Positions 1 through 50,694 of a stretch of 50,694 bases of DNA are shown piece after piece. This stretch comes from a virus. Every line of letters starts with the position of its first letter. The first letter of the stretch is position 1. The stretch is taken from positions 1 to 50,694 of the IMG/VR virus record IMGVR_UViG_3300045136_000360; one strand, given 5' to 3'. Below the pieces are notes generated by a model. The model made no database searches. It saw nothing but the letters and a program-made list of their open reading frames with translations, and was not told the origin of the DNA. The translations under genes were made by a program, and so were the position numbers.

Positions 1-493
1 CGTACTCGCTGACCACGTTTCAATCCTCACCCGACCCCGCGGCCGGGTGCGACCCGCCGCACCGGCTGCTGGTGGCGCTGACGAGCAAGTTTCAATCCTC
101 ACCCGACCCCGCGGCCGGGTGCGACGCGTGAAGGCGGTCTCGGGCGCGACCGCGGCGGAGATGTTTCAATCCTCACCCGACCCCGCGGCCGGGTGCGACC
201 TGGCGGCGCTCGGCTACGGCACCCAGTTCGCCGCCGTTTCAATCCTCACCCGACCCCGCGGCCGGGTGCGACGATGCAGGCGCTAGAGCAGGCAGGGGGG
301 AGTGGGACGCGTTTCAATCCTCACCCGACCCCGCGGCCGGGTGCGACGCGCCCCGTGATGAGCGACCGCGACCCCGGCGACGTTTCAATCCTCACCCGAC
401 CCCGCGGCCGGGTGCGACGTGGGGAGATCGGCGAGTTGGTAGCCGGCGAGGGCCAGGTTTCAATCCTCACCCGACCCCGCGGCCGGGTGCGAC
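1..493 (-). CRISPR. CRISPR array, left piece (7 repeats, 6 full spacers)
   Basis: Seven identical 37-nt repeats begin at 17, 89, 163, 236, 311, 382 and 457. On the + strand each starts GTTTCAATCC and ends GGGTGCGAC. Spacers are 34-38 nt (54-88, 126-162, 200-235, 273-310, 348-381, 419-456), and positions 1-16 are part of another spacer. On the - strand the repeat ends in ATTGAAAC, the usual 5' handle of type I-A/I-B/III-like systems, so transcription is inferred to run leftward from the phage side. The repeat has an inner palindrome around CCGCGG. No AT-rich leader and no cas genes are present; phage-like sequence abuts the last repeat at 494. Spacer 273-310 is identical to 34783-34820 of this window. 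Spacer 200-235 is the exact reverse complement of a spacer in the right array (50596-50631). Confidence 0.98.
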
Positions 494-696
494 GCCGCGG
501 CGCTGCATGGCATCGAAGATCCAGGCGGCGAACCGGGCCAGGATCGCCGGGTCGCGGGCCTCGGGGGGGCGCGGCGCGACCGGGGCGGGATCGTGTGGGC
601 GCGGGCGTGGCGGGGTCGGCCTGGCCGTCGAGGGACCAGTCGTGGTTTCGGTCGGCGGTGGAGTGGGGGCTTGATGATGGGGCTCTCCTTGATGAG
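494..696 (-). pseudogene. Broken minus-strand coding fragment abutting the CRISPR repeat
   Basis: Two minus-strand frames show strong GC-third-position coding signal in succession: about 690-600 (residues like DRNHDWSLDGQADP), then about 600-494 (ILARFAAWIFDAMQRRG). They are joined by an apparent one-base shift near 600. No ATG or GTG opens the first frame, although AAGGAG lies about 10 nt upstream of it. The second frame runs straight into the repeat and stops inside it, so the 3' end of the gene is lost at the junction. The family is not recognised. The last ~35 nt next to the repeat may themselves be a spacer identical to phage sequence, as expected for a crossover at 493/494. Confidence 0.35.
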
Positions 697-2546: not shown

Positions 2547-2719
2547 GGACGCTGGAGGAGAACGGCCACCTCTTCACCTGCTGGGGGAGCCGCGAGGCTG
2601 TCCCCTGCACCCACGACGGCTGCCGCGCCGTGCGCGCCGCCGTGGCACTCGCCCGCGAGCGGGGCTATCTCGACCGATCGACCGCCACCCATGGAGGGAC
2701 TGGGCATGAGCGAGCATAG
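2543..2719 (+). CDS. Small cysteine-containing protein
   Basis: A 58-residue product beginning MRTLEENGHLFTCWG, read from the ATG that overlaps the stop of the preceding gene and ending inside the next gene (overlap 2706-2719). Three cysteines plus a histidine (C-x8-CTHDGC) could bind one metal ion. No family is recognised. Coupled starts on both sides are the main evidence that it is expressed. Confidence 0.5.
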   Translation: MRTLEENGHLFTCWGSREAVPCTHDGCRAVRAAVALARERGYLDRSTATHGGTGHERA

Positions 2720-3143
2720 TACGATCGCCTGGACGGACGCCACCTGGCCGGTCGTCGTCGGCTGCGACCGCGTGTCGCCCGGCTGCGCTGCCTGCTATGC
2801 CATCCGCGACGCCTGGCGGATGGCGCACAACCCGAACCCGAAGATCAGCGACGTTTACCGTGGGCTGGTGGAGCCGTGCGGGGCGGGTCATCTGATGGAT
2901 CGCGATCCAGGGTGCGAGCACTGTCGCGGCACCAGGTGGCGGCCCACCGTAGAGGGGTTGGCCTGGGCGCGGTCGCTGCGGGACCAGTGCCAGGCGGCTG
3001 GGGTTGGCTTCTGGTGGAAACAGTGGGGCGGCCCCGGCCCGGAGAGTGGCGGGAGTCTGCTGGACGGACGCCGCTGGGAGCAGATGCCGGACGGGACGGG
3101 CGGGATCGTGGACTTCGGTCTTGACACATCCGCTATCAAGTGA
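2706..3143 (+). CDS. DUF5131 (phage Gp37/Gp68)-like protein with shortened middle
   Basis: The start MSEHSTIAWTDATWPVVVGC and the Cys-rich SPGCAACYA match the opening of the Gp37/Gp68 (DUF5131) family, and the end WARSLRDQCQAAG...WWKQWGG...LLDGRRWEQMP matches its tail. Family members are usually about 230-300 residues; this one is about 145, so the central part seems to have been deleted and replaced by a short Cys/His-rich stretch (about residues 50-78). Function of the family is unsettled. The 3' end overlaps a promoter (TTGACA at 3121). I read it as a decayed or minimised member. Confidence 0.65.
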   Translation: MSEHSTIAWTDATWPVVVGCDRVSPGCAACYAIRDAWRMAHNPNPKISDVYRGLVEPCGAGHLMDRDPGCEHCRGTRWRPTVEGLAWARSLRDQCQAAGVGFWWKQWGGPGPESGGSLLDGRRWEQMPDGTGGIVDFGLDTSAIK

Positions 3144-3425: not shown

Positions 3426-4022
3426 ATGCGGGTGCTGGGAGATCGGGAGGCGGAGATCGTGGCGCGGGCGCGGGCGGGCGACTCCGAGGCGCAGGGGGAG
3501 ATCTACGGGGCGTTCCGGTGGGTGATCTACGCCTTCATCTACCGGATGGTGGGCGACGAGGATGAGGCGGAGAACCTGACTCAGGACACCTTCATGCGGG
3601 CGTTTCGGGGGCTGTCGGCGACCAGGGAGGACACGAACGTGTCGGCCTGGCTGCACCGGATCGCCTCGAACGCCTGCCTGGACGTGCTGCGCCGGCGGCA
3701 GCGGCTGCGCTGGCAGCCGTGGGAGGGAGAGAAGCACGACCACCTGGTCGTCAGCACGGCGCTCGACGACCCGGAGCGCTCGGCCGAGCGGCGGGAGACG
3801 ATCCTGTTCGTCCGGCGGGTAATGGACCAGATGTCGAGCCGCCACCGGCTCGGGCTGATGCTGCGGGAGTACGAGGGCCTGAGTTGCGCGGAGATCGGGG
3901 AGGTGATGGGCCTGAGCCGGACGGCGGTCAAGTCGATGCTCTTCCGGGCGCGGGAGGAGTTCCGGGCGGTGTATGCCCGGCTTGAGCAGGAGGACCGGGA
4001 GTGGGCGGGGGCGGCGGCGTGA
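3426..4022 (+). CDS. RNA polymerase sigma factor, ECF-like sigma70 family
   Basis: A 198-residue protein with the two-domain plan of group 4 sigma factors. Region 2 is about residues 15-85 (EIYGAFRWVIYAFIYRMVGDEDEAENLTQDTF, with the conserved DAED-like/LTQDTF segment and WLHRIASNACLDVLRRR). Region 4 is about residues 125-182 (SSRHRLGLMLREYEGLSCAEIGEVMGLSRTAVKSMLFRAREEF, a clear helix-turn-helix). The length is typical of ECF factors. Phage-encoded sigma factors redirect host RNA polymerase to middle or late promoters. Its gene carries the same operator as other units, so it may be part of the regulon or direct it. Confidence 0.88.
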   Translation: MRVLGDREAEIVARARAGDSEAQGEIYGAFRWVIYAFIYRMVGDEDEAENLTQDTFMRAFRGLSATREDTNVSAWLHRIASNACLDVLRRRQRLRWQPWEGEKHDHLVVSTALDDPERSAERRETILFVRRVMDQMSSRHRLGLMLREYEGLSCAEIGEVMGLSRTAVKSMLFRAREEFRAVYARLEQEDREWAGAAA

Positions 4023-4415
4023 CGGTGGGGACGCGGAGCCTGCTGTTCGGGGTGCACCAGTTCCTTCTTCACCCGGTGATGGTGGCCCTGGGGTGGAGGA
4101 TGCTGTATGGGCGGTTCCCGAGGGACCCGCGAGTGTCGCACCCGGCCGCGGGGTCGGGTGAGGATTGAAACCCGCCACTGCTCACGCGAGATTGGGGTGC
4201 CGCCATCGCCCCTGTGCTGGGCGGACAAGCTGGCGACCGCGCTGTACCCCGCCTGGTTATTCCTGTTCCTGGCCCGGCTGAGTGGGGAGATAGGGGAGTA
4301 TCTGGCGCGGGCGCGGGAGGATGGTTCTATCGGCCCCGAGGCGACAGAGCGGGAGTGTCTGGCGACGTTACAGACCGACTGGCGACGGCAAGCATACGAG
4401 TATGGGGATCGTTGA
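4019..4415 (+). pseudogene. Phage protein (HD-like/LCWADKL family) split by a CRISPR repeat and lacking its middle
   Basis: From GTG 4019 (overlapping the sigma stop) the frame reads VTVGTRSLLFGVHQFLLHPVMVALGWRMLYGRFPRD up to 4134, then the CRISPR repeat begins at 4135 and its sequence brings a stop. After the repeat, 4172-4415 continue as CSREIGVPPSPLCWADKLATALYPAWLF...SGEIGEYL. Both halves match, in order, the two ends of a widespread phage protein I recall as GVHQF-HP...LYGR...HDWGYWG...HSR-YAR...LCWADKL. About 50-60 central residues, including the His/Asp-rich core, are missing. So the repeat sits exactly where a deletion has occurred, which points to a join made through CRISPR spacers rather than simple insertion. 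Confidence 0.7.
4135..4171 (+). CRISPR. Solitary full-length CRISPR repeat inside phage sequence
   Basis: One complete 37-nt repeat, identical to the terminal arrays' repeat and oriented like the right array (ending ATTGAAAC on the + strand). There is no second repeat within hundreds of bases. It interrupts a phage gene. Phage-encoded solitary repeats are known as RNA anti-CRISPRs, but the missing gene centre on either side suggests instead that the ~35-nt flanks (about 4100-4134 and 4172-4206) are adjacent spacers identical to the phage. Confidence 0.97.
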
Positions 4416-8113: not shown

Positions 8114-8896
8114 ATGACTGAGGTCGGGCGGGCGATCGACGCGGGGGGCTGGGCGATCCGGGTGGTCGGCCACGATATGGTGGCCCCGGACCAACTCCTG
8201 GCGAACCCGCGCAACTGGCGGCTGCACCCCCGGAGCCAACAGCAGGCGCTCGATGAGGCGGTGGCCGAGGTGGGGTTCATCCGGAGCGTGACGGTCAACC
8301 GCCGGACGGGCTTCATCGTGGACGGGCACCTGCGGGTGGAGCGGGCGCTGGCGGCCGGGGTGACGGCGATCCCGGTGGAGTACGTGGACCTGTCGGAAGA
8401 GGAGGAATGGAAGGCGCTGCTGTTCTTTGACCCGATCGCGGCGCTGGCGACCAAGGACGAGGCGGCGCTGGCGGCGCTGCGGGGCGAGGTGGACCTGAAG
8501 GGCGAGCAACTGCGGAAGCTGGCCGACGACCTGACCGGCGGGGCGAAGGAAACCAGCGACGGCTCGCTGCTGGCGCTGGTGGACGTGACGATCGGGGAGC
8601 CGCGGCATCAGGTGGCCGGGGGCGACGTCTGGCGGGTGGGGCCGCACATCCTGATCTGCGCCGACGTGATGGCCGGCTGGCCCGTTTGGGCGGACTACCT
8701 GCAGGAGGGGACGCTGTTCGTCCCCTACCCCGGCCCGTTCGTGCCCCTCTCGCTCCGGGCCGATGAGACGGCGCTGGTGCTGGTGCAACCGGACCCCTAC
8801 ATCGCCGGGCACCTGCTGGACCGCTACGCCGACGTCCGGGGAGAGGAGGCGGTGGGGCTGGAGCAGCGCACCGCCGAGCCGGGGGGTGCCCGATGA
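8114..8896 (+). CDS. ParB/Srx-like domain protein with vestigial methyltransferase-like tail
   Basis: Residues ~15-110 are a ParB-like domain (LLANPRNWRLHP...SQQQALDEAVAEVGFIRSV, GFIVDGHLRVERALAAG). Many phages fuse this domain to a DNA methyltransferase that begins GDVWxLGxHxLxCGD...DPPY. Here the tail starts the same way (GDVWRVGPHILICADV) but then reads LFVPYPGPF, with no DPPY and no SAM-binding segment, and is only ~100 residues long. I infer a former ParB-methyltransferase that lost its enzyme half. It starts one base after the preceding stop. Confidence 0.75.
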   Translation: MTEVGRAIDAGGWAIRVVGHDMVAPDQLLANPRNWRLHPRSQQQALDEAVAEVGFIRSVTVNRRTGFIVDGHLRVERALAAGVTAIPVEYVDLSEEEEWKALLFFDPIAALATKDEAALAALRGEVDLKGEQLRKLADDLTGGAKETSDGSLLALVDVTIGEPRHQVAGGDVWRVGPHILICADVMAGWPVWADYLQEGTLFVPYPGPFVPLSLRADETALVLVQPDPYIAGHLLDRYADVRGEEAVGLEQRTAEPGGAR

Positions 8897-9093
8897 GCGA
8901 GATCGGGCCGCCCTCCCCGGTGGGCATCGGGCTGGCCTGCCTGGGGGCCGTGATCGCGGGACGGGCGCTGCTGGCGCTGGGCGGCGACCTGCCCCCGTCC
9001 CCGCCCGGCCCCGAACAACTGTTCGCCTGCCTGGCGACCGCGCTGGCCCTGGGGCTGGCGCTGCTGCGGGCGGGCGGGGGGATGCGGCCATGA
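8893..9093 (+). CDS. Small protein with two membrane segments
   Basis: A 66-residue protein starting at ATG 8893 (ATGA overlap) and ending in an ATGA overlap with the DpdA-like gene. Two hydrophobic stretches (about residues 10-30 and 44-60) separated by a proline-rich loop predict a hairpin membrane protein. Its position inside the deazaguanine operon may be incidental. Confidence 0.6.
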   Translation: MSEIGPPSPVGIGLACLGAVIAGRALLALGGDLPPSPPGPEQLFACLATALALGLALLRAGGGMRP

Positions 9094-10004
9094 CCGAGCG
9101 CATCCGGACCGGCGGGACCTGGGACCCGGCGGCGCCCCCGATCTATTTCCTGGCCTCCAACGTGGACCGGATGCAGTGGGGCGTGCCGTGCCATGACCAC
9201 CTGCTGGTGGCGGTGAACGAGCTCCAGACCGAGGGCAATATCGAGAAGGTGGGGGGCTGGATCGCCGCCGGCAAGCAGGTGTTCATCGACAGTGGCATCT
9301 TCTGGCTGACCAACGAGCATGCCCGGCGCAATGGCGTGTCGATGGACGCGGCGCTGGCGCTGGCGCCGGAGGAGATCGACGGCTTCGAGGACCTCTGGAA
9401 GCGCTACCTCTACATCGTGAACCGCTACGGCGACCGGGCCTGGGGCTATATCGAGCTCGACCAGGGAGGGCGGGAGAACAAGCTCCGGACCCGCGCCCGG
9501 CTGGAGGCCGCCGGCCTGCGCCCGATCCCCGTCTATCACCCCCTGAACGATGGCTGGGACTACTTTGACGAGTTGGCAACCCGGTATGACCGCATCTGCT
9601 TCGGCAACATCGTGCAGGCCGACCAGTCGACCCGGCTGCGGCTGCTGGCGACGCTCTGGGAGCGCAAGTGCCGGTACCCCGACCTGTGGGTGCACGTGCT
9701 GGGGATGACCCCCAACGAATGGTTCAACGCCTACCCGCCGTCGAGTTCCGACAGCTCGACCTGGCTCTCCATCGTGCGCTGGGACTGCTACCGGGACGCG
9801 GCGGCGGGCAAGGGGTTCGGGAGGATGCCGAAGAACTTCCAGTACGCGCTGGGGGGCGACCCGGAGGGCGACACCGGCAGCCGGAAGGCGGTCCGGATGG
9901 CGAGCTACGGGAGCAACCTGATCGAGCGCAACCTGCGGAACCACCTGGCGGCCCTGCGGCGGCTGGGCTGCGTCATCCACCCCCCGGAGGACACCCGTGG
10001 CTGA
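9090..10004 (+). CDS. dpdA: DpdA-like deazaguanine DNA transglycosylase (TGT-like fold)
   Basis: A 304-residue protein resembling phage DpdA proteins, which exchange guanine in DNA for a 7-deazaguanine base. Visible features include VFIDSGIFWL (catalytic Asp region of the TGT barrel), YIELDQGG, the ARYDRICFGNIVQ-like strand, and WVHVLGMTPNEWFNAYPPSSSDSSTWLS, which corresponds to the HxxG...SxDSxxWL segment typical of the family. It lies directly upstream of QueD, QueE and FolE genes, so precursor supply and insertion are encoded together. It starts at ATG 9090 with a 4-nt overlap. The alternative, a tRNA-guanine transglycosylase, is less likely in this context and length. Confidence 0.78.
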   Translation: MTERIRTGGTWDPAAPPIYFLASNVDRMQWGVPCHDHLLVAVNELQTEGNIEKVGGWIAAGKQVFIDSGIFWLTNEHARRNGVSMDAALALAPEEIDGFEDLWKRYLYIVNRYGDRAWGYIELDQGGRENKLRTRARLEAAGLRPIPVYHPLNDGWDYFDELATRYDRICFGNIVQADQSTRLRLLATLWERKCRYPDLWVHVLGMTPNEWFNAYPPSSSDSSTWLSIVRWDCYRDAAAGKGFGRMPKNFQYALGGDPEGDTGSRKAVRMASYGSNLIERNLRNHLAALRRLGCVIHPPEDTRG

Positions 10005-10374
10005 GACGATGCTGGCGATCGTGCGGTTCGCGGCCGAGGGCTGGCACCGCTGGCCGGACGCCCCCGACCGGCGCCGCTACCTGCGGGACCCCCACCGCCA
10101 TCTGTTTCACATCGAGGTGGCGATCGAGGTGCGGCACGACGAGCGGGAGATCGAGTACCACGACCTGCTGGACCTGTGCCGGCGCCTGTGGCCCGACCGG
10201 GAGTTGGACGGCCGCGCGCCCGGCGACTGCGCCGCCTGGTCGTGCGAGACGCTGGCCCGCTCCCTGGCCGACCGCCTGGGGGCGATCTACCCCGGCCGGG
10301 CGCTGCAGGTGCGGGTGTTCGAGGATGGGGAGGTGGGCGCGCTGCTGGCCCGCCTCCCCACCAGTCAGGAGTAG
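9997..10374 (+). CDS. Conserved phage protein, possibly T-fold (QueD-like) relative
   Basis: A 125-residue protein from GTG 9997, overlapping the DpdA stop. The sequence FAAEGWHRWPDAPDRRRYLRDPHRHLFHIEVAIEV, with HDEREIEYHDL, is a pattern I have seen in small phage proteins. The clustered histidines and alternating strands recall the tunnel-fold family that includes QueD, but the QueD catalytic cysteine is not evident. It sits between dpdA and queD, so a role in deazaguanine chemistry or substrate delivery is plausible but unproven. Confidence 0.55.
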   Translation: MAETMLAIVRFAAEGWHRWPDAPDRRRYLRDPHRHLFHIEVAIEVRHDEREIEYHDLLDLCRRLWPDRELDGRAPGDCAAWSCETLARSLADRLGAIYPGRALQVRVFEDGEVGALLARLPTSQE

Positions 10375-10379
10375 CACGC

Positions 10380-10772
10380 ATGTTCCGAATCACCAAGGAG
10401 TTCTCGTTCTCGGCCTCGCACGTGCTGGCGGGCTTGCCCGAGGGGCACCCCTGCGGCCGGCTGCACGGGCACAACTACCGGGTGGAGGTGGTCCTGGAGG
10501 GGGAGGTGGACGGGATCGGGTTCGTGCTGGACTACAACGCGCTCGCCCCGCTGGCCGACCACCTGAAGGCGCGGTTCGACCACCGGCATCTGAACGACGT
10601 GCTGGCGCCATTGAACCCCACGGCCGAGCACCTGGCCTACTACCTGTATCACTGGATCGCTGGGGCATTCCCCGACTGGCCGCTGGCGGAGGTGCGGGTG
10701 AGCGAGACGGCCAAGACGTGGGCCAGCTACCGGCCAGATGGTCCGGATGGGATGGAGGTTCCGGGTGACTGA
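10380..10772 (+). CDS. queD: QueD: 6-carboxy-5,6,7,8-tetrahydropterin synthase
   Basis: A 130-residue T-fold enzyme converting 7,8-dihydroneopterin triphosphate to 6-carboxytetrahydropterin, the second step of preQ0 synthesis. It shows FSFSASHVLAG (first zinc His), HPCGRLHGHNY (catalytic Cys and the two further zinc His), VLDYNAL and a FDHRHLND segment, then NPTAEHLAYY with the conserved Glu. Length and motif order are normal, so it should be active. It is followed by QueE in an overlapping frame. Confidence 0.93.
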   Translation: MFRITKEFSFSASHVLAGLPEGHPCGRLHGHNYRVEVVLEGEVDGIGFVLDYNALAPLADHLKARFDHRHLNDVLAPLNPTAEHLAYYLYHWIAGAFPDWPLAEVRVSETAKTWASYRPDGPDGMEVPGD

Positions 10773-11448
10773 TCACACCTACCGGGTGAATGACGTGTAC
10801 GCCTGCATCCAGGGGGAGGGGGCGCTGGCGGGCCTGCCGATGGTGCTGCTGCGCCTGCATGGCTGCGGCGTCGGCTGCCCCTTCTGCGACACGAAGGAGA
10901 CGTGGGAAACCACGGCAGCCAACCGGGTTCCAACCCTCGACGATGCCCTGGGGGCCAACCCCCGCTGGTGCGAGATGACCGCGGACGCGCTGGCCGCCGC
11001 CCTGCGGGAGCGCTTCCCGCGCCTGGGCTGGGTGCTCGTGACCGGGGGCGAGCCCGCCGACCAGCCCCTCGGCCCGCTGGTGGAGGCGCTGCACCGCAAG
11101 CACTTCATCGCCGCCCTGGAAACCAGCGGCACCGCCCTGGGCCACGTGGGGGCGCGCTTCCACTGGGTCTGCGTCAGCCCCAAGATCGGCATGCCCGGCG
11201 GCCGGCCCATCCTGCCGGACGCGCTGGCGAGCGCCAATGAGATCAAGATGGTGATCGGCCGGCAATCCGACCTGGATAAGCTAGACACCCTACTGGCCGA
11301 CCACCGGGGGCATATCCCGGCCAGCGCCATGATCTCGCTCCAGCCCATGAGCGCGAATGCAACCGCCACCCGGCTCTGCTTGGAGACGGCCCTGGCGCGG
11401 GGCTGGCGACTCTCCCTGCAATTGCACAAGTACATCGGCGCGAGGTGA
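10765..11448 (+). CDS. queE: QueE: 7-carboxy-7-deazaguanine synthase (radical SAM)
   Basis: From GTG 10765 (8-nt overlap with queD) the product is 227 residues. VYACIQGEGALAGLPMVLLR and HGCGVGCPFCDTKETW give the radical-SAM cluster motif C-x3-C-x2-C. LVTGGEPADQP is the GGEP motif binding SAM, and ALETSGT, SPKIGMPGG and EIKMVIG match QueE strands. It converts carboxytetrahydropterin to 7-carboxy-7-deazaguanine (CDG). QueC (CDG to preQ0) was not found nearby, so either the host supplies it or CDG or a derivative is the base used. Confidence 0.92.
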   Translation: MTDHTYRVNDVYACIQGEGALAGLPMVLLRLHGCGVGCPFCDTKETWETTAANRVPTLDDALGANPRWCEMTADALAAALRERFPRLGWVLVTGGEPADQPLGPLVEALHRKHFIAALETSGTALGHVGARFHWVCVSPKIGMPGGRPILPDALASANEIKMVIGRQSDLDKLDTLLADHRGHIPASAMISLQPMSANATATRLCLETALARGWRLSLQLHKYIGAR

Positions 11449-11452
11449 CGGC

Positions 11453-12001
11453 ATGAGCGTGGACACGGCCGCGATCGAGAACGCCATCCGGACGATCCTG
11501 GCCGCCATCGGGGAGGACCCCGAGCGGGAGGGGCTGCGGGACACCCCGGCGCGCGTCGCCCGCTTCTGGCGGGAGTTCGTGGACTACGACCCCGGCGAGA
11601 TCGAGCGGGTGTTCACCGCTACCCGGCGGGGCCAGCTCGTGGCCGTGGCCGGGATGCGGGTCTGGAGCCTGTGCGAGCATCACCTGCTGCCCTTCTGGTG
11701 CGACGTGACGATCGGCTACCTGCCCCGCGGGCGGGTGCTGGGCCTGAGCAAGTTCGCTCGGGTCGCCCACCAGCACGCCCACGGGCTGCAAATCCAGGAG
11801 CGGCTGGCCGGGCAGATCGCCCGCTCGATCGAGGAGGCCACCGGCTCGCCCGACGTGGGCGTGATCGTGACCGGCGAGCACCTGTGCATGACGATGCGGG
11901 GCATCCGGACGCCGGGGCGGATGACGACCCTCGACTTCCGAGGGCGGCTGGACGAGGACCCGACCCTCCAGGCGCACTTGCTGCGCCTGGCCGGGGTTTG
12001 A
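11453..12001 (+). CDS. folE: FolE: GTP cyclohydrolase I
   Basis: A 182-residue enzyme (typical for type I) opening GTP to dihydroneopterin triphosphate, the first step toward deazaguanines. It starts ATG 11453, 4 nt after the queE stop. Motifs: GLRDTPARVARFW, WSLCEHHLLPF (zinc Cys and His), GRVLGLSKFARVAHQHAHGL, QERLAGQIARSIEE, and TGEHLCMTMRGIR (second zinc Cys). All catalytic landmarks seem intact. A phage copy ensures precursor supply independent of host folate control. Confidence 0.95.
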   Translation: MSVDTAAIENAIRTILAAIGEDPEREGLRDTPARVARFWREFVDYDPGEIERVFTATRRGQLVAVAGMRVWSLCEHHLLPFWCDVTIGYLPRGRVLGLSKFARVAHQHAHGLQIQERLAGQIARSIEEATGSPDVGVIVTGEHLCMTMRGIRTPGRMTTLDFRGRLDEDPTLQAHLLRLAGV

Positions 12002-12578: not shown

Positions 12579-14261
12579 GTGGTGGCGGCCCGGTCGGAGC
12601 GGCTGGAGGCGACGCTGACCGCGCTGACGGCGGTGCGGTTGCGCCGGCTCTATCACCAGCGGGCGGCGGCGGCGATGGGCCGGGAGGTGCCCGAGCCGAC
12701 CGACCGGGACCTGCGGGAGTTGGAGGGGGACTGGGAAGGCTGGCTGGGGGCGATGTTTCCCGGGGCAATGGCGGCGCCGTTCGGGGAGCACCATCGGCGC
12801 TACTGGGAGTTGATCTGGTCGATCGAGGCCGGGGAGCGCCCCCGCCCGATCGTGATGATCCTGGCCCGTGGGGGAGGCAAGTCGACCTGCGCGCAGGGGG
12901 CGGTCGTCGCCCTCGGGGCGCGGCGCAAGCGCCGGTACGGGCTGTACGTGTCGGGGACGCAGGACCAGGCCGACAAGCACCTGGCGGACGTGGAGAACCT
13001 GCTGGGCTCGCCCGGCATCGAGCGTTATTACCCCGACCTGGCCCGCCGCAAGGTCAACAAGTACGGCCACTCGCGGGGCTGGCGGCGCAACCGGCTGTGG
13101 ACCGCCAGCGGGTTCGTGGTGGACGCGATGGGCTTCGATACCGCCATCCGGGGTATCAAGGCCATGAACCAGCGCCCGGACTTCATCGTGATCGATGACG
13201 TGGACGCCCAGCACGACTCCCCCGAGGTGGTGCGGAAGAAGATCGACATCCTGACCGGGAGCATCTTGCCGGCCGGCTCGGGGGATTGTGCCGTGCTGGC
13301 GATCCAGAACGTGGTGCACCCGGACGGGGTGTTCGCCCGGCTGGGCGGGGTGAGCAAGACGCCCGCCGACTTCCTGGCCGACCGGGTGCTGATCGGTCCG
13401 ATCCCTGCCGTGGTCGGGCTGACCTACGAGCAGCGGGAGGATGACGAGGGCCGGCTGCGGTTCGTCATCACCGGGGGGACCGCCACCTGGGAGGGGCAGT
13501 CCCTGACGGTCTGCCAGCATCAGATCGACACGATGGGCATGAGCGCCTTCCTGCGAGAGGCGCAGCATCAGGTTGGCGCGCCACCGGGCGGGATGTTCTC
13601 ACACCTGCGCTACCAGCACGTGACGCGAGGCGAGATGCCGGCGCTGGTGCGGGTGGAGGTGTGGGTGGACCCGGCGGTGACGGACACGGATCAGTCGGAC
13701 GCCCACGGCATCCAGGCTGACGGGCTGGGCGTGGATGGGCGGGTCTACCGGCTGTTCTCCTGGGAGGACCGGACGACGCCCGAGGACTCGCTGCGGCGGG
13801 CGATCGCCAAGGCCGTGGAACTGGGGTCGCTGGTGGTGGGGGTCGAGACGGACCAGGGGGGCGACACCTGGCGGAGCGTGTACGAGCGGGCCTGGGAGCG
13901 CTTCGCGGCCGACTGGCGGGAGGCGCGGCCGGGCCGGGACCTGCCCCGGCGACCCGACTTCGTGTGGGCCAAGGCGGGCCAGGGGCACGGCCCCAAGGTC
14001 CACCGGGCCAGCCAGATGCTGGCCGACTACGAGGCGGGTGGGATCGTGCACGTGACCGGGACGCACGAGACGCTGGAAGCGGCGCTGTTCCGCTACCCGC
14101 TGACCAAGCCGCTCGATCTGGTGGACGCCGGCTACTGGTCGTGGGCCAGCCTGCGGAACCGATTCACCCCGACCGCGCTCCCGGAGAGCCTGGAAGCGCC
14201 GAGTATCTGGAGCATGGAGCGGGGCGATACCCTTGGGGATGATGAATACGGCGACGACTAG
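12579..14261 (+). CDS. Terminase large subunit
   Basis: A 560-residue DNA-packaging motor. Walker A is ILARGGGKSTC (about residue 90-100), Walker B is FIVIDDVD (about 200), and the nuclease half shows WVDPAVTDTDQSDAHGI, VVGVETDQGGDTW and further acidic residues (residues ~360-430) for RNase-H-like metal binding. It cuts concatemeric DNA and threads it into proheads through the portal encoded next. It starts at GTG 12579. Positions 13130-13163 are the exact protospacer of a spacer in the right CRISPR array, so the host defence targets this gene. Confidence 0.92.
   Translation: MVAARSERLEATLTALTAVRLRRLYHQRAAAAMGREVPEPTDRDLRELEGDWEGWLGAMFPGAMAAPFGEHHRRYWELIWSIEAGERPRPIVMILARGGGKSTCAQGAVVALGARRKRRYGLYVSGTQDQADKHLADVENLLGSPGIERYYPDLARRKVNKYGHSRGWRRNRLWTASGFVVDAMGFDTAIRGIKAMNQRPDFIVIDDVDAQHDSPEVVRKKIDILTGSILPAGSGDCAVLAIQNVVHPDGVFARLGGVSKTPADFLADRVLIGPIPAVVGLTYEQREDDEGRLRFVITGGTATWEGQSLTVCQHQIDTMGMSAFLREAQHQVGAPPGGMFSHLRYQHVTRGEMPALVRVEVWVDPAVTDTDQSDAHGIQADGLGVDGRVYRLFSWEDRTTPEDSLRRAIAKAVELGSLVVGVETDQGGDTWRSVYERAWERFAADWREARPGRDLPRRPDFVWAKAGQGHGPKVHRASQMLADYEAGGIVHVTGTHETLEAALFRYPLTKPLDLVDAGYWSWASLRNRFTPTALPESLEAPSIWSMERGDTLGDDEYGDD
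13130..13163 (-). other. Protospacer matching right-array spacer 50525-50558
   Basis: The 34-nt spacer at 50525-50558 is the exact reverse complement of 13130-13163 (34 of 34), in the terminase large subunit between the Walker motifs. In repeat-forward orientation the protospacer is on the - strand, with CAT immediately 5' of it. That is the candidate PAM position for type I systems. Confidence 0.97.
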
Positions 14262-16964: not shown

Positions 16965-17250
16965 CATCGTGGTCGAGGTGGCCGATGAGGCGGCGGCGCA
17001 CCGGCTGGGGGCGGCGCTGCTGGGCCAGTTCATCGAGCCGGCCGAGGGGCGGGTGAGCCTGCTGCCCGAGGGGAGCGAATTCCTGGGCATCTGCTACGGG
17101 GAGCCGGCGGCGGGGGAGGATGCCGGGACGGCGGTGGAGGTCGCCCCGGAGCCGGCCCCGGAGCCCGAGACCGGGCCGAGCGCGGTGGAGATCGCGGAGG
17201 AGATCATCCGGCAGAACCGGAAGAAGAAGCGGGGGGACCGGGGGGCATGA
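16948..17250 (+). CDS. Hypothetical head-region protein
   Basis: A 100-residue protein (MKAVISIVVEVADEAAAHRL...). The first ~55 residues are alternating strands and helices, the middle is a Pro/Glu-rich linker, and the end is basic (RQNRKKKRGDRG). Start ATG 16948 lies in the end of the preceding gene, and its TGA overlaps ATG 17247 (ATGA). Unknown function; translation is supported by coupling. Confidence 0.6.
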   Translation: MKAVISIVVEVADEAAAHRLGAALLGQFIEPAEGRVSLLPEGSEFLGICYGEPAAGEDAGTAVEVAPEPAPEPETGPSAVEIAEEIIRQNRKKKRGDRGA

Positions 17251-23170: not shown

Positions 23171-25246
23171 ATGCCCTATTCGGGTCCGAACGATCCCGAC
23201 CTGCCGGCCAACGTGCGAACGCTGCCCGAGGGGGAGCGGGCGCGCTGGGTGGCCGTGTGGAATGACGCCTACCGGGCATGCCGGGAGCGTGGGGGGAAGG
23301 ACTGCGAGGGCGCGGCCTTCCGGACGGCCAACGGCGCGCTCAAGAGATCGGCCAATCAGCCCGACGCGGGGGATGTGCACATGCCACAGCCGGTCAAGGT
23401 GAAGCGGGACCGGGATGCGAAACCGACGCGCTACTTCCTGGCCCGCCTGCGGGACCTGCTCAAGGAGTACGTGGGCAAGGGCGAGATGACCGACCAGGAC
23501 TACGCGGCGGCCGTGCGCAAGGCGCGGGCGCACGCCGGGGGGATGATGCGGGCGCGGCGGCGCTCCGAGATGGCCGCCCACTGCGGGATGCCCCACGCGG
23601 GGGAGAGGCAGGCCGCCGAGGATGACGGGGAGCACACCGGCCTGATCGTGGCGCTGTGGGTGCCGGCGCCGCAGGCCGACCTGCTGGCGGTCGCGGGTGG
23701 GGAGCCGGCGGCGGACCTGCATCTGACGCTGGCCTACCTGGGGGAGAGCACGCCGGACCTGGCGGCCAAGGTGCACACGGCGGTCGGGCGCTTCTGCGAA
23801 CGGCGCGGCCCGGTGACGGCGACGGTGAGCGGCATCGGGCGCTTCGCTGCCCCGGCCGGCGAGGATGACGCCTATGAAGCGGTGTACGCCTCGGTGGACT
23901 GTCCCTACCTGGGCCGGCTGCGGGAGGAGTTGATCGACTGCCTGATGGCCTGCGGACTGCCGGTGTCGATGGATCACGGGTTCACCCCCCACATCACGCT
24001 GGCCTACGTCCCGGCCGGCGAGCCGTCGCCCATCGACCAGGTGGAGCCGATGGAGATGCGCTTCACGACCGTCTGTGTGGCGGCCGGCGAGGACCGGACG
24101 GAGTTCGCCCTGGCCGGCCCCGACCCGCACGCGGCCAATGGCGGCCTCTACCCCGGCATGATGCCGGCCGCCTACCGCGAGGTGCACGACCTGGTCGCCC
24201 GGCGGGAGGGGCAGACGCACCGGCTGTTCCTGGAGGCGCGGTTCGGGGAAGCGCCGGAGTGGATTCCGGTGCTGCCGGCGCCGGGGACCTATGCCCACCC
24301 GCGCTATGGGGAGATCGTCATCACCCGCGCGCGCAATGAGCGGTTCGTGCAGCAGTTCAACGGCGGGGTGTACCAGAGCCAGGTGCCGGTGGATGCCGAG
24401 CACGAGACGAAGCTGTCCGGGGCCTGCGGGTGGATCACGGAGCTCCGGCTGAATGCGGACGGCTCGGCTGACGCGCGGGTGGAGTGGACGGACCGGGGGA
24501 TCGCCCTGATGGAGGGCGGCCGGTTCAAATACGTGAGCCCCGAGTGGTACGACGAATGGACGGACCCGGCCACGCGGCAGGTGCATCGGGACGTGTTGAT
24601 CGGGGCCGCCCTGACCACGCGACCATTTTTCAAGGAGGGGGCCTTGCGGTCCCTGGTGGCCTCGGAGCGGGGGCTGGAGTGGCCCGATGAGGCGGCCGGG
24701 ACGGACGGCCGCGGTGATCAGGAGGAGAGCAGGATGGCGGAGCAGCAGGTGGCGATGACGGAGGAGCAGGCCCGGCGGTTCGCGGAGATGGAGCGGCAGC
24801 TTACCGAGGCGCAGGCGCAGGCCAAGCAGCTCGCGGAGCGGCTGGCGAGCCAGGAGCGGGCGGCCCGGACCAAGCGGTTCACCGATGAGGTGCTGGGCCG
24901 GTCGGATGAGAACGGCCACGCCTGGACGGTGGGTGAGGTGAAGGCGCACGTGACCTTCATGGAGAAGCTGGCGCTCGCTTTCGGCGAGCAGAGCGAGGAG
25001 TTGGCCTACTACATCGCCACGATGCGGTCGGCGACCGAGCAGGCGCGCCAGGGCAAGCTGTTCGCGGAGGTGGGCACGGACGCCACCCGGCCGGCCGGCG
25101 AGGACGCGGTGGCGCGGGCGCGGGGCCTGGCGGCCAAGCGGGCGGCGGAGGAGAGGATCAGCCTGGGCGACGCCCTGGGGCTGGTCTTCCAGGAGGACCC
25201 GGCGCTGTACGCGGCCTACACCGCGCAGACCACGCAGACGCTCTAA
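23171..25246 (+). CDS. ChaB - 2H phosphoesterase - Mu I-like prohead protease - scaffold polyprotein
   Basis: A 691-residue protein. Residues ~1-60 are ChaB-like (YSGPNDPDLPANVRTLPEGERARWVAVWN). Residues ~155-310 are a 2H phosphoesterase/LigT-like domain with the paired HLTLAYLG (~183) and HITLAYV (~274) motifs. Residues ~325-510 resemble the Mu gpI prohead protease (VPVDAEHETK, AGWITEL-like, VEWTDRGIALMEGGRFKYVSPEW). From ~515 a charged coiled-coil (MAEQQVAMTEEQARRFAEME) is the scaffold, released by proteolysis. An internal ATG at 24734 could give a separate scaffold, as in Mu. Position before decoration and capsid genes fits. Fusion of a 2H phosphoesterase to a prohead protease is odd. Confidence 0.85.
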   Translation: MPYSGPNDPDLPANVRTLPEGERARWVAVWNDAYRACRERGGKDCEGAAFRTANGALKRSANQPDAGDVHMPQPVKVKRDRDAKPTRYFLARLRDLLKEYVGKGEMTDQDYAAAVRKARAHAGGMMRARRRSEMAAHCGMPHAGERQAAEDDGEHTGLIVALWVPAPQADLLAVAGGEPAADLHLTLAYLGESTPDLAAKVHTAVGRFCERRGPVTATVSGIGRFAAPAGEDDAYEAVYASVDCPYLGRLREELIDCLMACGLPVSMDHGFTPHITLAYVPAGEPSPIDQVEPMEMRFTTVCVAAGEDRTEFALAGPDPHAANGGLYPGMMPAAYREVHDLVARREGQTHRLFLEARFGEAPEWIPVLPAPGTYAHPRYGEIVITRARNERFVQQFNGGVYQSQVPVDAEHETKLSGACGWITELRLNADGSADARVEWTDRGIALMEGGRFKYVSPEWYDEWTDPATRQVHRDVLIGAALTTRPFFKEGALRSLVASERGLEWPDEAAGTDGRGDQEESRMAEQQVAMTEEQARRFAEMERQLTEAQAQAKQLAERLASQERAARTKRFTDEVLGRSDENGHAWTVGEVKAHVTFMEKLALAFGEQSEELAYYIATMRSATEQARQGKLFAEVGTDATRPAGEDAVARARGLAAKRAAEERISLGDALGLVFQEDPALYAAYTAQTTQTL

Positions 25247-31422: not shown

Positions 31423-31763
31423 CCTGGGATGCCGTCTGGTCGGTGGCGCGGATCGACCTGGGGCTGTCGGACGATGAGTTCTGGCGGCTGGTGCCGCGCC
31501 AGTACGCGGCCTTGCTCAAGCGGAGGCGTGAGGTGAATCGGCGGGCCGACCTGCGGGCCGGCATCGTGGCGGCGGTGATCGCCAATGCGCACCGGGGAAA
31601 GGACAGCCAGCCGTTCAGGCCGAAGGACTTCATGGTCGACCCGCCGCCGGCCGCGGCCCCCCGGCCGCAGACGCCGGCCGAGATGCTGGCGATGGTCGAG
31701 ACGCTGAACGCGCTGTTCGGCGGGGAGGATCGGCGGGGACGGCCGGAGGAGGGGGCGGAATGA
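31036..31763 (+). CDS. Tail assembly chaperone, -1 frameshift fusion (gpGT-like)
   Basis: Reading shifts back one base at 31413-31419 and continues LTWDAVWSVARIDLGLSDDEFWRLVPRQYAALLKRRRE...NAHRGKDSQPFRPKDFM to 31763. That is the usual second domain of the long chaperone. The second frame has no start of its own at a sensible place, and the tape measure ATG overlaps its end (31760). This is the lambda G/GT arrangement. The fused product is about 241 residues. Confidence 0.85.
31413..31419 (+). promoter_or_regulatory. Programmed -1 ribosomal frameshift site
   Basis: In frame ACG GGG GGC TGA, the heptamer G GGG GGC fits X-XXY-YYZ, and the stop follows directly. Slipping back one base gives CTG ACC TGG, the open second chaperone frame. 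A downstream pseudoknot or stem was not resolved by eye. Confidence 0.8.
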
Positions 31764-34700
31764 GCTTCGGGCCGCAGATGACCCTGGCCGACCTGATGGT
31801 CCGCCTGAACCTGGACACGTCGAACTTCGAGCGGGGAGCGCGGCGGGCCGAGCAATCCGCTCGGGGGTTCCGGCGGGTGTTGCAGGACACCCTCTCCGGG
31901 GCGACGATGGGCGCCGGCATGGCGGTGGCGAACGCGGCGCTGAGCGTGCTGGTGCAGGCGTTCAACGCCGCCCAGGACGCGGTGATCGGGTTCAACAGCA
32001 CGCTGGAGCAGGCCGACCTGGCCTTCGGCAAGATGCTGAAATCGGGGGAGGCCGCCAGGTCCTTCCTGGCCGACCTGAAGCGCTTCGCGGCGCAGACGCC
32101 GTTCGAGTTCCCCGAGTTGCTGACCGCCAGCCGGCGTCTGCTGGCCTTCAAGTTTCAGGCCGGGCAGATCATCCCGCTGATGACCGCCATCGGGGACGTG
32201 GCGGCGGCCAGTGGCAATGCCGGGGCGGAGGGGATTGGGCGGCTGACGACGGCCCTGGGGCAGATGCAGGCCAAGGGGCGGGTGCAGCAGGAGGAGTTGC
32301 TGCAACTGCAGGAGGCGGGCGTCGCCACCAGTGAGATTCTGGCGATCGTGGCCCGCGACGTCGGCATGACGATGGATGAGGTGGAGGAGGCGCTGAGCAA
32401 GGGGCGCATCTCCAGTGACGCGTTCATCAAGGCGTTCATGGAGTGGAGCCAGGCCAACGTCGGCGGGATGATGGCGGAGCAGGCCAAGACCTTCCAGGGG
32501 GCCATGTCCACCATCTCCGACAGCCTGCGGGACGCGGCGGCGACCGCCTTCCGGGCGCTGTTCGTGCGGTTGAGCGAGGCGGCCCAGCGGTTCGCCCAGT
32601 TCGTGCAGTCGGCCGAGTTCGGGGAGTGGGTGCAAAAGACGGCGCTGTACGTGGAGTTCGTGATCCGGGCGCTCGCGGTGCTGGCGAACGCCTTCCAACG
32701 GACGATGGTGGCGATCGCGACGATCGTGGTGACGGCCGGAGCGGTGATCCTGAAGGGGATGGCCCTGCTGAACCCGTTCGTGCGGCACTCCCCGAGCCTG
32801 GTGGAGTCGGTGGAGGAGGGGTTCGGGCGGCGCATCCCGGCGGCGATCGCCGGCATGGCGGAGCAGGTGCGGGAGAAGCTGGCGATCGCCGGCCGGGCGG
32901 TGGCGGCCTTCAAGGCGATGGCGAGCGGGGGGCTGGCGCGGGCGGAGGGGCTGCGGGAGTCGGAGACGGTGGGCCAGGTGGCGCGGCTGGGGCCGGGGGC
33001 GACCGGGGCCTATGTCGAGGCCCGGAACGCGATGCGGGACCTGGAGAGCCAGGCCGAGAGCCTGGGTGGGGAGATTCGGGAGGGGGAGGCGGCGCTGCGG
33101 GAGATGGAGCGGGCGCTGCGGCCGCTCCAGGATGCGTTCGACGCCGCGTCCCGGCGGGTGCAGGGCTACCGGAACACCATCGCCGAGGCGCAAGAGGCGA
33201 TGCGGCGGCTGGTGAGCGAGGGCAAACTGCCCGGCGAGGAGCATCACGAGAACCAACTGGCCGACAACCGGCGCCGGCAGGCCGAGACGGAACTGCGGAT
33301 GCTGGAACTGAAGGCGAAGGGGTCCCCGACCGCGACCGATGAGCGGGAGTACCAGCGGTTGCAGAAGCAACTGGAGGGGTTGCGGACGGAGGAGCAAAGG
33401 CTCCGGTTGCAGGGGGAACTGACCTTCGGGGAGCAGCGGCGGAAGTTGGCTCAGGCTGCCGGTGAGCATAAGGAGGTGAGCGCCAGGGACCGGCTGGCAG
33501 GGATCCTCAAGGCCAAGGAGGCACTCCAGCAGGCCCAGCAGGCGCTGCCGGCAGCCGAGGCCGAGATGAAGGGGGCCGGGGAGGCGCTGGAACTTGCCAA
33601 GGGGAAGATCGAGCTCCAGCGAACGGCGTTGCAGGACCTGAAGGATGAGTACGCGGAGATCACGCGGGAGTTGCAGGCGCAGCGGGCGGCGATGGACCAG
33701 ATGCTCGCCGAGGCGCGGGAGTTGGACCAGGCGGCGAAGGCTGGCGCTGGTGGGGCTGGCAAGGGCGATATTGGGAAGGGGCTGACGTTCGGGGCGGGGA
33801 CCGCGCCGCCGTGGGCGAAGAAGGCCGACGACTGGGCCACGGAGAACAACGCCCTGCGCTCGCTGGCGACCGAGCTTGAGGAGACACTGAAAACGCTGGA
33901 GAAGAACCTGGACACGGGCGTGGGCAAGATCGAGGCGTTCGCGACCGGGTTCCAGAAGCAATTCGGGATCGAGGGCGGGCTGCCGGGGGCACTGGCCGCG
34001 TTCCGGCAGGGGTGGGATGACAACTTTGGGCCAATGATGGAGAAACTGGGCGAGTTTGGGACCTGGCTGAGTGAGAACACGCCCGCCGCGATGCAGGGGT
34101 TCCAGCGTGGGTGGGAGACTTATCTGCGGCCGACCTTCGAGGCGATCCGGGAGGGGGCCAAGACGGTGGGGGTGGACGTGAACACGGGCCTGGTGCAACT
34201 GTTCTCGCTGTGGCTGCCGCTGAGCCTTGGGAACTGGCAGCGGTCCTGGGCAGTGGCGGAGGCGGTGTTCAAGGGGATGGGTCCGCTGTTCGACCCCCAT
34301 GGGCCGATGAAGCCGCTGTACGATTTCGAGGTGTTCTGGCGGGTGACGCTGCCGGTGGCGGTGAATGGGTTCCTGGGCAACACCCTGGACAAGTTGTTGG
34401 AGGGGCTGGGCAGCCTGTTGGAGAAATTGCGGCCGATTGGGGAGGTGCTGGGGGCGATCAAGAAGGGGTTCGAGTCGATCAAACCCCCGGACTGGATGGG
34501 GGGCGGGAACGCCGCGCCAGGCATGGACGGCGGCAACGGCCGGGGGAGCGGCGGGGGCCGGCGGCAGATGTACGCGACCGGGGGGAGTTTCGTGGTGGGC
34601 GGCCACGGGGGGCTGGACAGCCAGCTCGTGAGCTTCATGGCGACGCCGGGGGAGCGGGTGACGATCACGCCGCCGGGGAATGGGGGCGGTGCGCTGGCGC

Positions 34701-34852
34701 TGACCGGGCCGCTGGTGGGGAGCATCTCGATCCAGGGGCGAGAAGACGTGACGGCGCTGCTGCGGGCGCTGGAGGGGATGCTGATGCAGGCGCTAGAGCA
34801 GGCAGGGGGGAGTGGGACGCGATTCCCGCTGGGGATGGAGCGGCGGATGTAG
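31760..34852 (+). CDS. Tape measure protein
   Basis: A 1030-residue protein in the canonical place after the chaperones. The N-terminal half has TMP-type sequence (RFAAQTPFEFPELLTASRRLLAF, EGIGRLTTALGQMQAKGRVQQEELLQLQE, FQGAMSTISDSLRDAAATAF). A hydrophobic segment (~300-335) precedes long coiled-coil regions (~400-680). The C terminus has GGSFVVGGHGGLDSQLVSFMATPGE, common at TMP ends. At about 0.15 nm per residue it implies a tail near 150 nm. The extreme 3' end, 34783-34820, is an exact protospacer of left-array spacer 273-310. Confidence 0.93.
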   Translation: MSFGPQMTLADLMVRLNLDTSNFERGARRAEQSARGFRRVLQDTLSGATMGAGMAVANAALSVLVQAFNAAQDAVIGFNSTLEQADLAFGKMLKSGEAARSFLADLKRFAAQTPFEFPELLTASRRLLAFKFQAGQIIPLMTAIGDVAAASGNAGAEGIGRLTTALGQMQAKGRVQQEELLQLQEAGVATSEILAIVARDVGMTMDEVEEALSKGRISSDAFIKAFMEWSQANVGGMMAEQAKTFQGAMSTISDSLRDAAATAFRALFVRLSEAAQRFAQFVQSAEFGEWVQKTALYVEFVIRALAVLANAFQRTMVAIATIVVTAGAVILKGMALLNPFVRHSPSLVESVEEGFGRRIPAAIAGMAEQVREKLAIAGRAVAAFKAMASGGLARAEGLRESETVGQVARLGPGATGAYVEARNAMRDLESQAESLGGEIREGEAALREMERALRPLQDAFDAASRRVQGYRNTIAEAQEAMRRLVSEGKLPGEEHHENQLADNRRRQAETELRMLELKAKGSPTATDEREYQRLQKQLEGLRTEEQRLRLQGELTFGEQRRKLAQAAGEHKEVSARDRLAGILKAKEALQQAQQALPAAEAEMKGAGEALELAKGKIELQRTALQDLKDEYAEITRELQAQRAAMDQMLAEARELDQAAKAGAGGAGKGDIGKGLTFGAGTAPPWAKKADDWATENNALRSLATELEETLKTLEKNLDTGVGKIEAFATGFQKQFGIEGGLPGALAAFRQGWDDNFGPMMEKLGEFGTWLSENTPAAMQGFQRGWETYLRPTFEAIREGAKTVGVDVNTGLVQLFSLWLPLSLGNWQRSWAVAEAVFKGMGPLFDPHGPMKPLYDFEVFWRVTLPVAVNGFLGNTLDKLLEGLGSLLEKLRPIGEVLGAIKKGFESIKPPDWMGGGNAAPGMDGGNGRGSGGGRRQMYATGGSFVVGGHGGLDSQLVSFMATPGERVTITPPGNGGGALALTGPLVGSISIQGREDVTALLRALEGMLMQALEQAGGSGTRFPLGMERRM
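34783..34820 (-). other. Protospacer matching left-array spacer 273-310
   Basis: All 38 nt of the spacer at 273-310 are identical, same + strand sense, to 34783-34820. In repeat-forward orientation the protospacer lies on the - strand, with ATC immediately 5'. The target is the last codons of the tape measure gene. Confidence 0.97.
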
Positions 34853-46562: not shown

Positions 46563-46677
46563 CCTGGTGGCCCGCCACCAGGCGCTTGACAGATCAGCGA
46601 TCAGGTGAGATACTGGGCGCATGACACGCTAGAGTGTCAGTGATGCAATCACGAACGGGAGGGAGACGCGATGGGGG
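46563..46677 (+). repeat. 115-bp promoter-operator-leader module, copy 2
   Basis: This begins with a perfect 9-bp hairpin (CCTGGTGGC/GCCACCAGG, 46563-46582), then TTGACA (46586), 17 nt, GATACT (46609), GACAC (46623), GTGTC (46634), GATGC (46642), a common leader and ribosome site GGGAGGGAG, and the ATG of the AAA+ gene at 46671. The copy at 48780-48894 differs at one base only. Confidence 0.92.
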
Positions 46678-48779: not shown

Positions 48780-48894
48780 CCTGGTGGCCCGCCACCAGGC
48801 GCTTGACAGATCAGCGATCAGGTGAGATACTGGGCGCATGACACGCTAGGGTGTCAGTGATGCAATCACGAACGGGAGGGAGACGCGATGGGGC
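48780..48894 (+). repeat. 115-bp promoter-operator-leader module, copy 3
   Basis: Direct repeat of 46563-46677 with one substitution (CTAGGG for CTAGAG in the operator core). Hairpin 48780-48799, TTGACA 48803, GATACT 48826, GACAC 48840, GTGTC 48851, GATGC 48859. It even preserves the leader and the start of the next gene (GATGGGG). Confidence 0.92.
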
Positions 48895-50223: not shown

Positions 50224-50268
50224 GCCGTTGGGAGAACAGGCGGTGCGGCCCCGGAGCGCGATCGGCGC
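50220..50268 (+). CDS. Truncated start of the next phage gene at the junction
   Basis: GTG 50220 overlaps the preceding TGA and opens a frame (VSRWENRRCGPGARSA) that runs straight into the first repeat of the right array. Only ~16 codons are phage. The last ~35 nt before 50269 may double as a spacer. Included as a partial gene; the start could be spurious. Confidence 0.3.
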
Positions 50269-50694
50269 GTCGCACCCGGCCGCGGGGTCGGGTGAGGATT
50301 GAAACCGGTGGAGGGGGTGGCGTGCGCCAGTGCAGGGACGTCGCACCCGGCCGCGGGGTCGGGTGAGGATTGAAACGCCAGCCCGCGGATGGCTGCCTCC
50401 CCGAGCTTGAGTCGCACCCGGCCGCGGGGTCGGGTGAGGATTGAAACAAACCCTGAGATCGCGTCATTGATGCCTTTGCCGCCGACTGTCGCACCCGGCC
50501 GCGGGGTCGGGTGAGGATTGAAACGGCCTTGATACCCCGGATGGCGGTATCGAAGCCCGTCGCACCCGGCCGCGGGGTCGGGTGAGGATTGAAACGGCGG
50601 CGAACTGGGTGCCGTAGCCGAGCGCCGCCAGGTCGCACCCGGCCGCGGGGTCGGGTGAGGATTGAAACCAGACCCGCCGGCGCGCCCGCGGCCC
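50269..50694 (+). CRISPR. CRISPR array, right piece (6 repeats, 5 full spacers)
   Basis: Repeats start at 50269, 50340, 50411, 50488, 50559 and 50632. They are identical to the left array but on the opposite strand (GTCGCACCCG...ATTGAAAC on +). Spacers are 34-40 nt; 50669-50694 is an incomplete last spacer. Spacer 50525-50558 exactly matches the terminase gene (13130-13163, opposite strand). Spacer 50596-50631 is shared with the left array. No leader or cas genes. Both arrays point outward from the phage, with their presumed leader-proximal ends at the phage junctions. Confidence 0.98.

What the first reader, a model, noticed from the sequence alone, without database searches (positions are those of the whole stretch)
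50525..50558. Right-array spacer is an exact copy of the terminase large subunit gene
34 of 34 nt match 13130-13163 on the opposite strand. With the tape measure spacer this gives two independent exact hits to the same phage from two array pieces, both with repeat-forward protospacers on the phage - strand. Repeated sampling of the same strand would fit primed adaptation. Flanks differ (CAT versus ATC on the 5' side), so no PAM is yet defined.
Basis: partly seen in the sequence, partly recalled or inferred. Interest (0 to 1): 0.78.

Follow-up and report, generated by a model that had tools for sequence, protein, structure and literature searches.

The report
Host CRISPR spacers fused onto phage contig
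A 34-letter immune-memory spacer really is an exact copy of a phage packaging gene, but the CRISPR pieces on this contig look like bacterial host arrays wrongly joined to the phage sequence at places where spacer and phage are identical, so this is ordinary host immunity plus a chimeric contig rather than a phage carrying CRISPR or proof of primed adaptation.

Summary
The match is real: spacer 50525-50558 equals 13163..13130 in terL, 34/34 (chance expectation about 10^-15). A second spacer (310..273) equals 34820..34783 in the tape measure gene, 38/38. The inference drawn from this is not supported: two spacers on one strand is a coin toss, no PAM emerges, and the other eight distinct complete spacers do not match this phage.

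The contig is a tailed-phage genome joined to CRISPR pieces with one identical 37-nt repeat: 7 copies at the left end (- strand), 6 at the right (+), and one solitary repeat at 4135-4171 inside a gene. Nine intact homologous loci encode 50-68 residues (HDxGYWGSPNMDG core) where the window has only the repeat, out of frame. The flanks of that repeat are therefore probably two more spacers; both array ends also abut phage-like sequence without a leader.

Best explanation: arrays of an uncultured host, probably type I-C, were joined to the phage through spacer=protospacer identity, most likely during assembly. A toy multi-k assembler did not reproduce the join; short-anchor gap filling did. True DNA recombination is a live rival. 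Counting four inferred junction protospacers, strands are 3:3.

The parts
50525..50558 (+). Spacer R4 of the right array piece, exact copy of part of terL
   Evidence: 34/34 to 13163..13130
13130..13163 (-). Protospacer in the terminase large subunit gene (ORF 12579-14261)
   Evidence: phrog_38
273..310 (-). Spacer L3 of the left array piece, exact copy of part of the tape measure gene
   Evidence: 38/38 to 34820..34783
34783..34820 (-). Protospacer in the tape measure gene (ORF 31760-34852)
   Evidence: PF20155
17..493 (-). Left CRISPR array piece, 7 exact repeats, runs off the contig start
   Evidence: Rfam CRISPR-DR9
50269..50694 (+). Right CRISPR array piece, 6 exact repeats, runs off the contig end
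   Evidence: Rfam CRISPR-DR9
4135..4171 (+). Solitary exact repeat inside the gene 4019-4415, in place of about 50 codons
   Evidence: Rfam CRISPR-DR9
4019..4415 (+). Gene broken by the solitary repeat (N part 4019-4134, C part 4172-4415 in another frame)
   Evidence: Nine intact homologous loci L131-L139; frames
4101..4134 (+). X: inferred spacer=protospacer before the solitary repeat (34 nt assumed)
   Evidence: inference
4172..4205 (+). Y: inferred spacer=protospacer after the solitary repeat (34 nt assumed)
   Evidence: inference
50235..50268 (+). R0: inferred spacer=protospacer at the right junction (34 nt assumed); ends a short GTG frame from 50220
   Evidence: inference
494..527 (-). 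L0: inferred spacer=protospacer at the left junction (34 nt assumed); ends an open minus-strand frame
   Evidence: inference
200..235 (-). Spacer L4, identical to R5 of the right piece
50596..50631 (+). Spacer R5, identical to L4 of the left piece

Best explanation
The repeats and spacers are pieces of CRISPR arrays of the phage's uncultured bacterial host, probably served by a type I-C Cas system. The terL and tape measure spacers are genuine immune memory against this phage or a near-identical one. They sit on the phage contig because phage and array sequence were joined wherever a spacer and its protospacer are identical: at the left end (L0), at the right end (R0), and inside the gene 4019-4415, where the path leaves the phage at X, crosses one repeat and re-enters the phage at Y. 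The most likely cause is a short-anchor step in assembly (gap filling or contig extension). Shown: the exact matches, the repeats, the broken gene, no leader-like sequence at the junctions. Inferred: that X, Y, L0 and R0 are spacers, the host system type, and the assembly cause.
For: Exact spacer matches. The solitary repeat stands where nine homologous loci have 50-68 further residues including a conserved core; N and C parts are in different frames. Array pieces abut phage-like sequence without a leader at both ends, unlike L047. The two pieces are inverted to each other and share a 111-nt identical segment. No cas gene among the phage proteins scanned. Similar repeats stand beside I-C cas genes in bacterial contigs. 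Gap filling with k up to 35 takes the repeat instead of the true middle, and greedy extension enters the repeat when array depth is higher. Short reads are known to give chimeric contigs at CRISPR arrays (PMC6617893).
Against: A multi-k de Bruijn toy never produced the join, so a modern assembler would need an extra faulty step. No reads or depth are available. Homologs of the two end frames were not found, so truncation at the ends is not shown. X, Y, L0 and R0 were not seen in an independent array.
Confidence: 0.65

Rival explanations
1. Real recombinant DNA: phage and host CRISPR locus recombined at spacer=protospacer identities. For example a phage segment entered the chromosome between two divergent arrays at L0 and R0, and a second exchange at X and Y put one repeat in place of about 150 nt of a gene.
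For: Joins lie where spacer and phage identity would place crossovers; the two pieces diverge, as arrays flanking a cas locus could. Recombination between spacers and phage targets is documented (Varble 2019 as summarised in PMC8616872). A toy multi-k assembler needs junction reads to make such joins.
Against: Needs at least three exchanges over about 34 nt in one molecule; no host gene beyond the arrays is present; both pieces simply run off the contig.
Confidence: 0.12
2. Phage-borne arrays: the phage itself carries mini-arrays and a solitary repeat, used against related phages or as an RNA anti-CRISPR.
For: Solitary repeats and mini-arrays occur in viruses with repeats like the host's (PMC6858448, PMC10651486).
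Against: Two spacers match the carrier itself exactly; no leader; pieces hold at least 6 and 7 repeats, not 1-2 spacers; the solitary repeat breaks a conserved gene and is not truly solitary.
Confidence: 0.08
3. Library chimeras: template switching during whole-genome amplification or PCR joined phage and array at shared spacers before sequencing.
For: Would give junction reads without biology; needs only short identity (general knowledge).
Against: Such chimeras are usually a minority and would have to win at three places in one contig.
Confidence: 0.1
4. One reading: primed adaptation with strand-biased repeated sampling of this phage.
For: The two certain protospacers are on one strand; the inferred X and Y come from one gene and strand.
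Against: Two of two has probability 0.5; with the four inferred ones the count is 3:3. The 5' flanks CAT and ATC share no PAM and neither is the canonical I-C TTC (PMC8482600).
Confidence: 0.1

Closest known systems
Type I-C CRISPR arrays of Chloroflexota and Armatimonadota relatives (L038, L047)
   Same: 37-nt repeat starting GTCGCACCC and ending GGGTGAGGATTGAAAC; spacers of similar length; arrays beside Cas3c, Cas5c, Cas8c, Cas7c
   Different: Middle of the repeat differs (closest 4 mismatches, single copies in L038 and L045; 6 in L047); window has no cas genes or leader
Virus-borne mini-CRISPR arrays (SPV1/SPV2, PMC6858448)
   Same: CRISPR repeats on a viral sequence with spacers against a virus
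   Different: Those hold 1-2 spacers, have leaders, are intergenic and avoid self-matching; here 6-7 repeats, no leader, exact self-matches, one broken gene
Solitary repeat units / RNA anti-CRISPRs (Racr, PMC10651486)
   Same: One repeat alone in a phage genome
   Different: Here it lies inside a conserved gene, other repeats are on the same contig, and its flanks belong to that gene
Recombination between phages and CRISPR loci in staphylococci (Varble 2019, read only as summarised in PMC8616872)
   Same: Would join phage and array at spacer=protospacer identity
   Different: Not shown here; would need several exchanges in one molecule

Membership tests
CRISPR array | Identical direct repeats with unique spacers of similar length | tested here: met
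   14 exact 37-nt repeats, complete spacers 34-40 nt; Rfam CRISPR-DR9
CRISPR array | Spacers derived from foreign DNA | tested here: met
   Two exact matches to phage genes
Type I-C CRISPR-Cas locus | cas3-cas5c-cas8c-cas7c operon with the array | tested here: inconclusive
   Present beside similar repeats in L047 and L038; none in the window; host not found
Type I-C CRISPR-Cas locus | Canonical PAM TTC 5' of protospacers | tested here: not met
   Flanks CAT and ATC; only two protospacers, other I-C PAMs are known
Virus-borne mini-CRISPR array | 1-2 spacers, leader, intergenic position | tested here: not met
   6-7 repeats per piece, no leader-like sequence (by eye)
Virus-borne mini-CRISPR array | Spacers do not match the carrier virus | tested here: not met
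   Two exact self-matches
Solitary repeat unit / Racr | Intergenic repeat not associated with other repeats | tested here: not met
   4135-4171 is inside a conserved gene and 13 more copies lie on the contig
Solitary repeat unit / Racr | Transcribed small RNA that inhibits Cas | not testable with these tools
   Needs RNA and an assay
Primed adaptation | Strand-biased, distance-clustered protospacers around a priming site | tested here: inconclusive
   2 certain (both -) or 6 with inference (3+, 3-); too few

The most novel reading that the evidence does not exclude
The joins are real DNA: the phage recombined with its host's CRISPR locus at several spacer=protospacer identities, entering between two divergent arrays (perhaps removing cas genes) and swapping part of one gene for a repeat, so that stored spacers served as landing sites for the phage they target.
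Probability: 0.12. Interest if true: 0.8.

Novelty: new member of a known kind. Interest (0 to 1): 0.35.

Why it matters
It ties an uncultured phage to a host with a particular repeat (probably type I-C) through at least two, perhaps six, exact spacers. It also shows a specific hazard: in metagenomic virus collections, spacer=protospacer identity can apparently put CRISPR repeats and array pieces onto phage contigs. Such contigs could be counted as phage-borne arrays, self-targeting phages or solitary repeat units. A simple check catches it: does the repeat break a conserved gene, and do both flanks belong to that gene? If the joins were real DNA, it would instead be natural evidence of spacer-guided recombination between a phage and the immune locus that targets it.

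Tried and rejected
PAM from the two flanks: CAT and ATC, no shared motif, no I-C TTC. Matches of the other spacers: none closer than chance; spacer L6 has 9 of 35 mismatches at 16993, which 8 of 300 random GC-rich 35-mers equal, so not significant over eight spacers. terL spacer against TerL-relative loci: best 7 mismatches (L035), so no better target among the fetched loci. Host search by exact repeat in viral contigs and GTDB r220 contigs: none; 400 genomes of one phylum at up to 3 mismatches: none. Homologs of the left-junction frame: none; of the 434-aa right-end protein: none. The C part of the broken gene alone found nothing by peptide patterns or in annotated phages; it was recovered with a degenerate codon pattern, then with that homolog as query. 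The motif behind that pattern was partly recalled from memory; the homology itself was tested by alignment. Multi-k assembly toy: no join. Leader at the junctions: window flanks do not look like the L047 leader by eye.

Full report
Observation. The window is a 50,694-base virus record. Positions 50525-50558 are a 34-nt spacer between two exact copies of the repeat GTCGCACCCGGCCGCGGGGTCGGGTGAGGATTGAAAC, and they equal 13163..13130 letter for letter. A chance match is expected about 10^-15 times. The target lies in the terminase large subunit gene (phrog_38). The companion spacer 310..273 equals 34820..34783 in the tape measure gene (38/38; PF20155).

Surroundings. Fourteen exact repeats are present: seven on the - strand at 17-493, six on the + strand at 50269-50668, and one alone at 4135-4171. 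All reach the Rfam CRISPR-DR9 threshold. The left and right pieces are inverted to each other, both run off the contig, and they share one spacer with its two repeats, 111 identical nt, while the neighbouring spacers differ. Between the pieces is a tailed-phage genome: replication initiator, sigma factor, endolysin, exonuclease, QueE- and FolE-like genes, terminase, portal, head protease, major head protein, tape measure, tail proteins and an AAA ATPase.

The solitary repeat is the informative part. Upstream of it a GTG start at 4019, overlapping the sigma-factor stop, begins VTVGTRSLLFGVHQFLLHPVMVALGWRMLYGRFPRDPR. Downstream, in another frame, comes RHCSREIGVPPSPLCWADKLATALYPAWLF.... A degenerate pattern for the C part found one homolog (L050), and its protein as query gave nine loci, one of them the same contig (L131). 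In all nine these two parts are one gene, with 50-68 further residues between them including the conserved HDxGYWGSPNMDG-like core. The window has only the 37-nt repeat there. The simplest reading is that both flanks of the repeat are spacer=protospacer sequences from one gene, on the + strand and roughly 150-200 nt apart, and that the contig path crossed an array between them.

The two array ends fit the same reading but less firmly. On both sides the first repeat directly follows phage-like sequence with no leader. On the right it cuts a short GTG frame that overlaps the preceding stop by four bases (50220). On the left it ends an open minus-strand frame reading LARFAAWIFDAMQRRG, which has no ordinary start codon and no codon-position signal. 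No homolog of the left frame was found and the right one is too short to search, so truncation there is not shown. In a related array (L047) a cas2-like gene and about 150 nt of leader precede the first repeat (the cas2 reading is mine, from the sequence).

Whose arrays. Repeats with the same ends occur in Chloroflexota and Armatimonadota contigs. The closest, with 4 mismatches, are single copies in L038 and L045. In L047 (6 mismatches) and L038 the neighbouring genes score as Cas3c, Cas5c, Cas8c and Cas7c, with Cas4 and Cas1c in L047. A type I-C system in an uncultured host is therefore likely, by similarity only.

Mechanism of the join. A plain multi-k de Bruijn toy with coverage pruning never formed the join: above k=35 phage and array share nothing, and below it pruning cuts phage from spacer on both sides. 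This counts against a simple assembler error and is why confidence is moderate. A shortest-path gap fill with k of 35 or less always took the 37-nt repeat in place of a 152-nt stand-in middle, and a greedy k=31 extension entered the repeat when array depth exceeded phage depth. Such steps exist in some pipelines; the pipeline here is unknown. Real recombination at spacer-protospacer identity is documented (summarised in PMC8616872) and would suit the divergent arrays, but needs at least three exchanges in one molecule. Amplification chimeras are a third option. A common technical cause acting at shared spacers seems most likely to me.

Strand: both certain protospacers are on the - strand, probability 0.5 by chance; with the four inferred ones the count is three and three. 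PAM: CAT and ATC, no I-C TTC (I-C PAMs listed in PMC8482600). Of ten distinct complete spacers, eight show no match to the phage body beyond chance. Primed adaptation is not excluded, but it is not supported by these data.

Comparison with known systems. Virus-borne mini-arrays have one or two spacers, a leader, an intergenic place and avoid self-matching (PMC6858448); solitary repeat units were sought as intergenic repeats without other repeats nearby (PMC10651486). The window fails these tests. It is best filed as host CRISPR array pieces with exact spacers against a co-occurring phage, a known kind of relationship, seen through a chimeric contig.

Limits.

Noticed in passing
window 2691-3143: A DUF5131 (PF07505) gene lacks its middle: N and C parts match relatives L059, L096 and L116, which have roughly 150-190 more residues between them. 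The frame stays open and no CRISPR repeat is present.
   Followed up: partly
window 46563-46676 and 48780-48893: A 114-nt promoter-like segment (TTGACA, 17 nt, GATACT, then a TGACAC..GTGTCA-like element) is duplicated with one difference in front of two genes.
   Followed up: partly
window 779, 3163, 3395, 42847, 46630, 48847: A recurring operator-like motif TAGAGTATCAKTGATRC: 7 matches at up to 3 mismatches against 0.03 expected, several beside TTGACA-type promoter sequence; possibly sites of one phage regulator.
   Followed up: partly
window 8670-11998: Genes like a queuine tRNA-ribosyltransferase, QueE and GTP cyclohydrolase I sit together, suggesting a 7-deazaguanine DNA or RNA modification pathway.
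   Followed up: no
window 200-235 and 50596-50631: The two array pieces share one spacer with both flanking repeats, but its neighbours differ on each side: two arrays, strain variants, or an assembly tangle.
   Followed up: partly
window 23171-25243: One ORF matches both RNA ligase families (residues about 142-315) and head maturation protease families (about 356-685), an apparent fusion.
   Followed up: no
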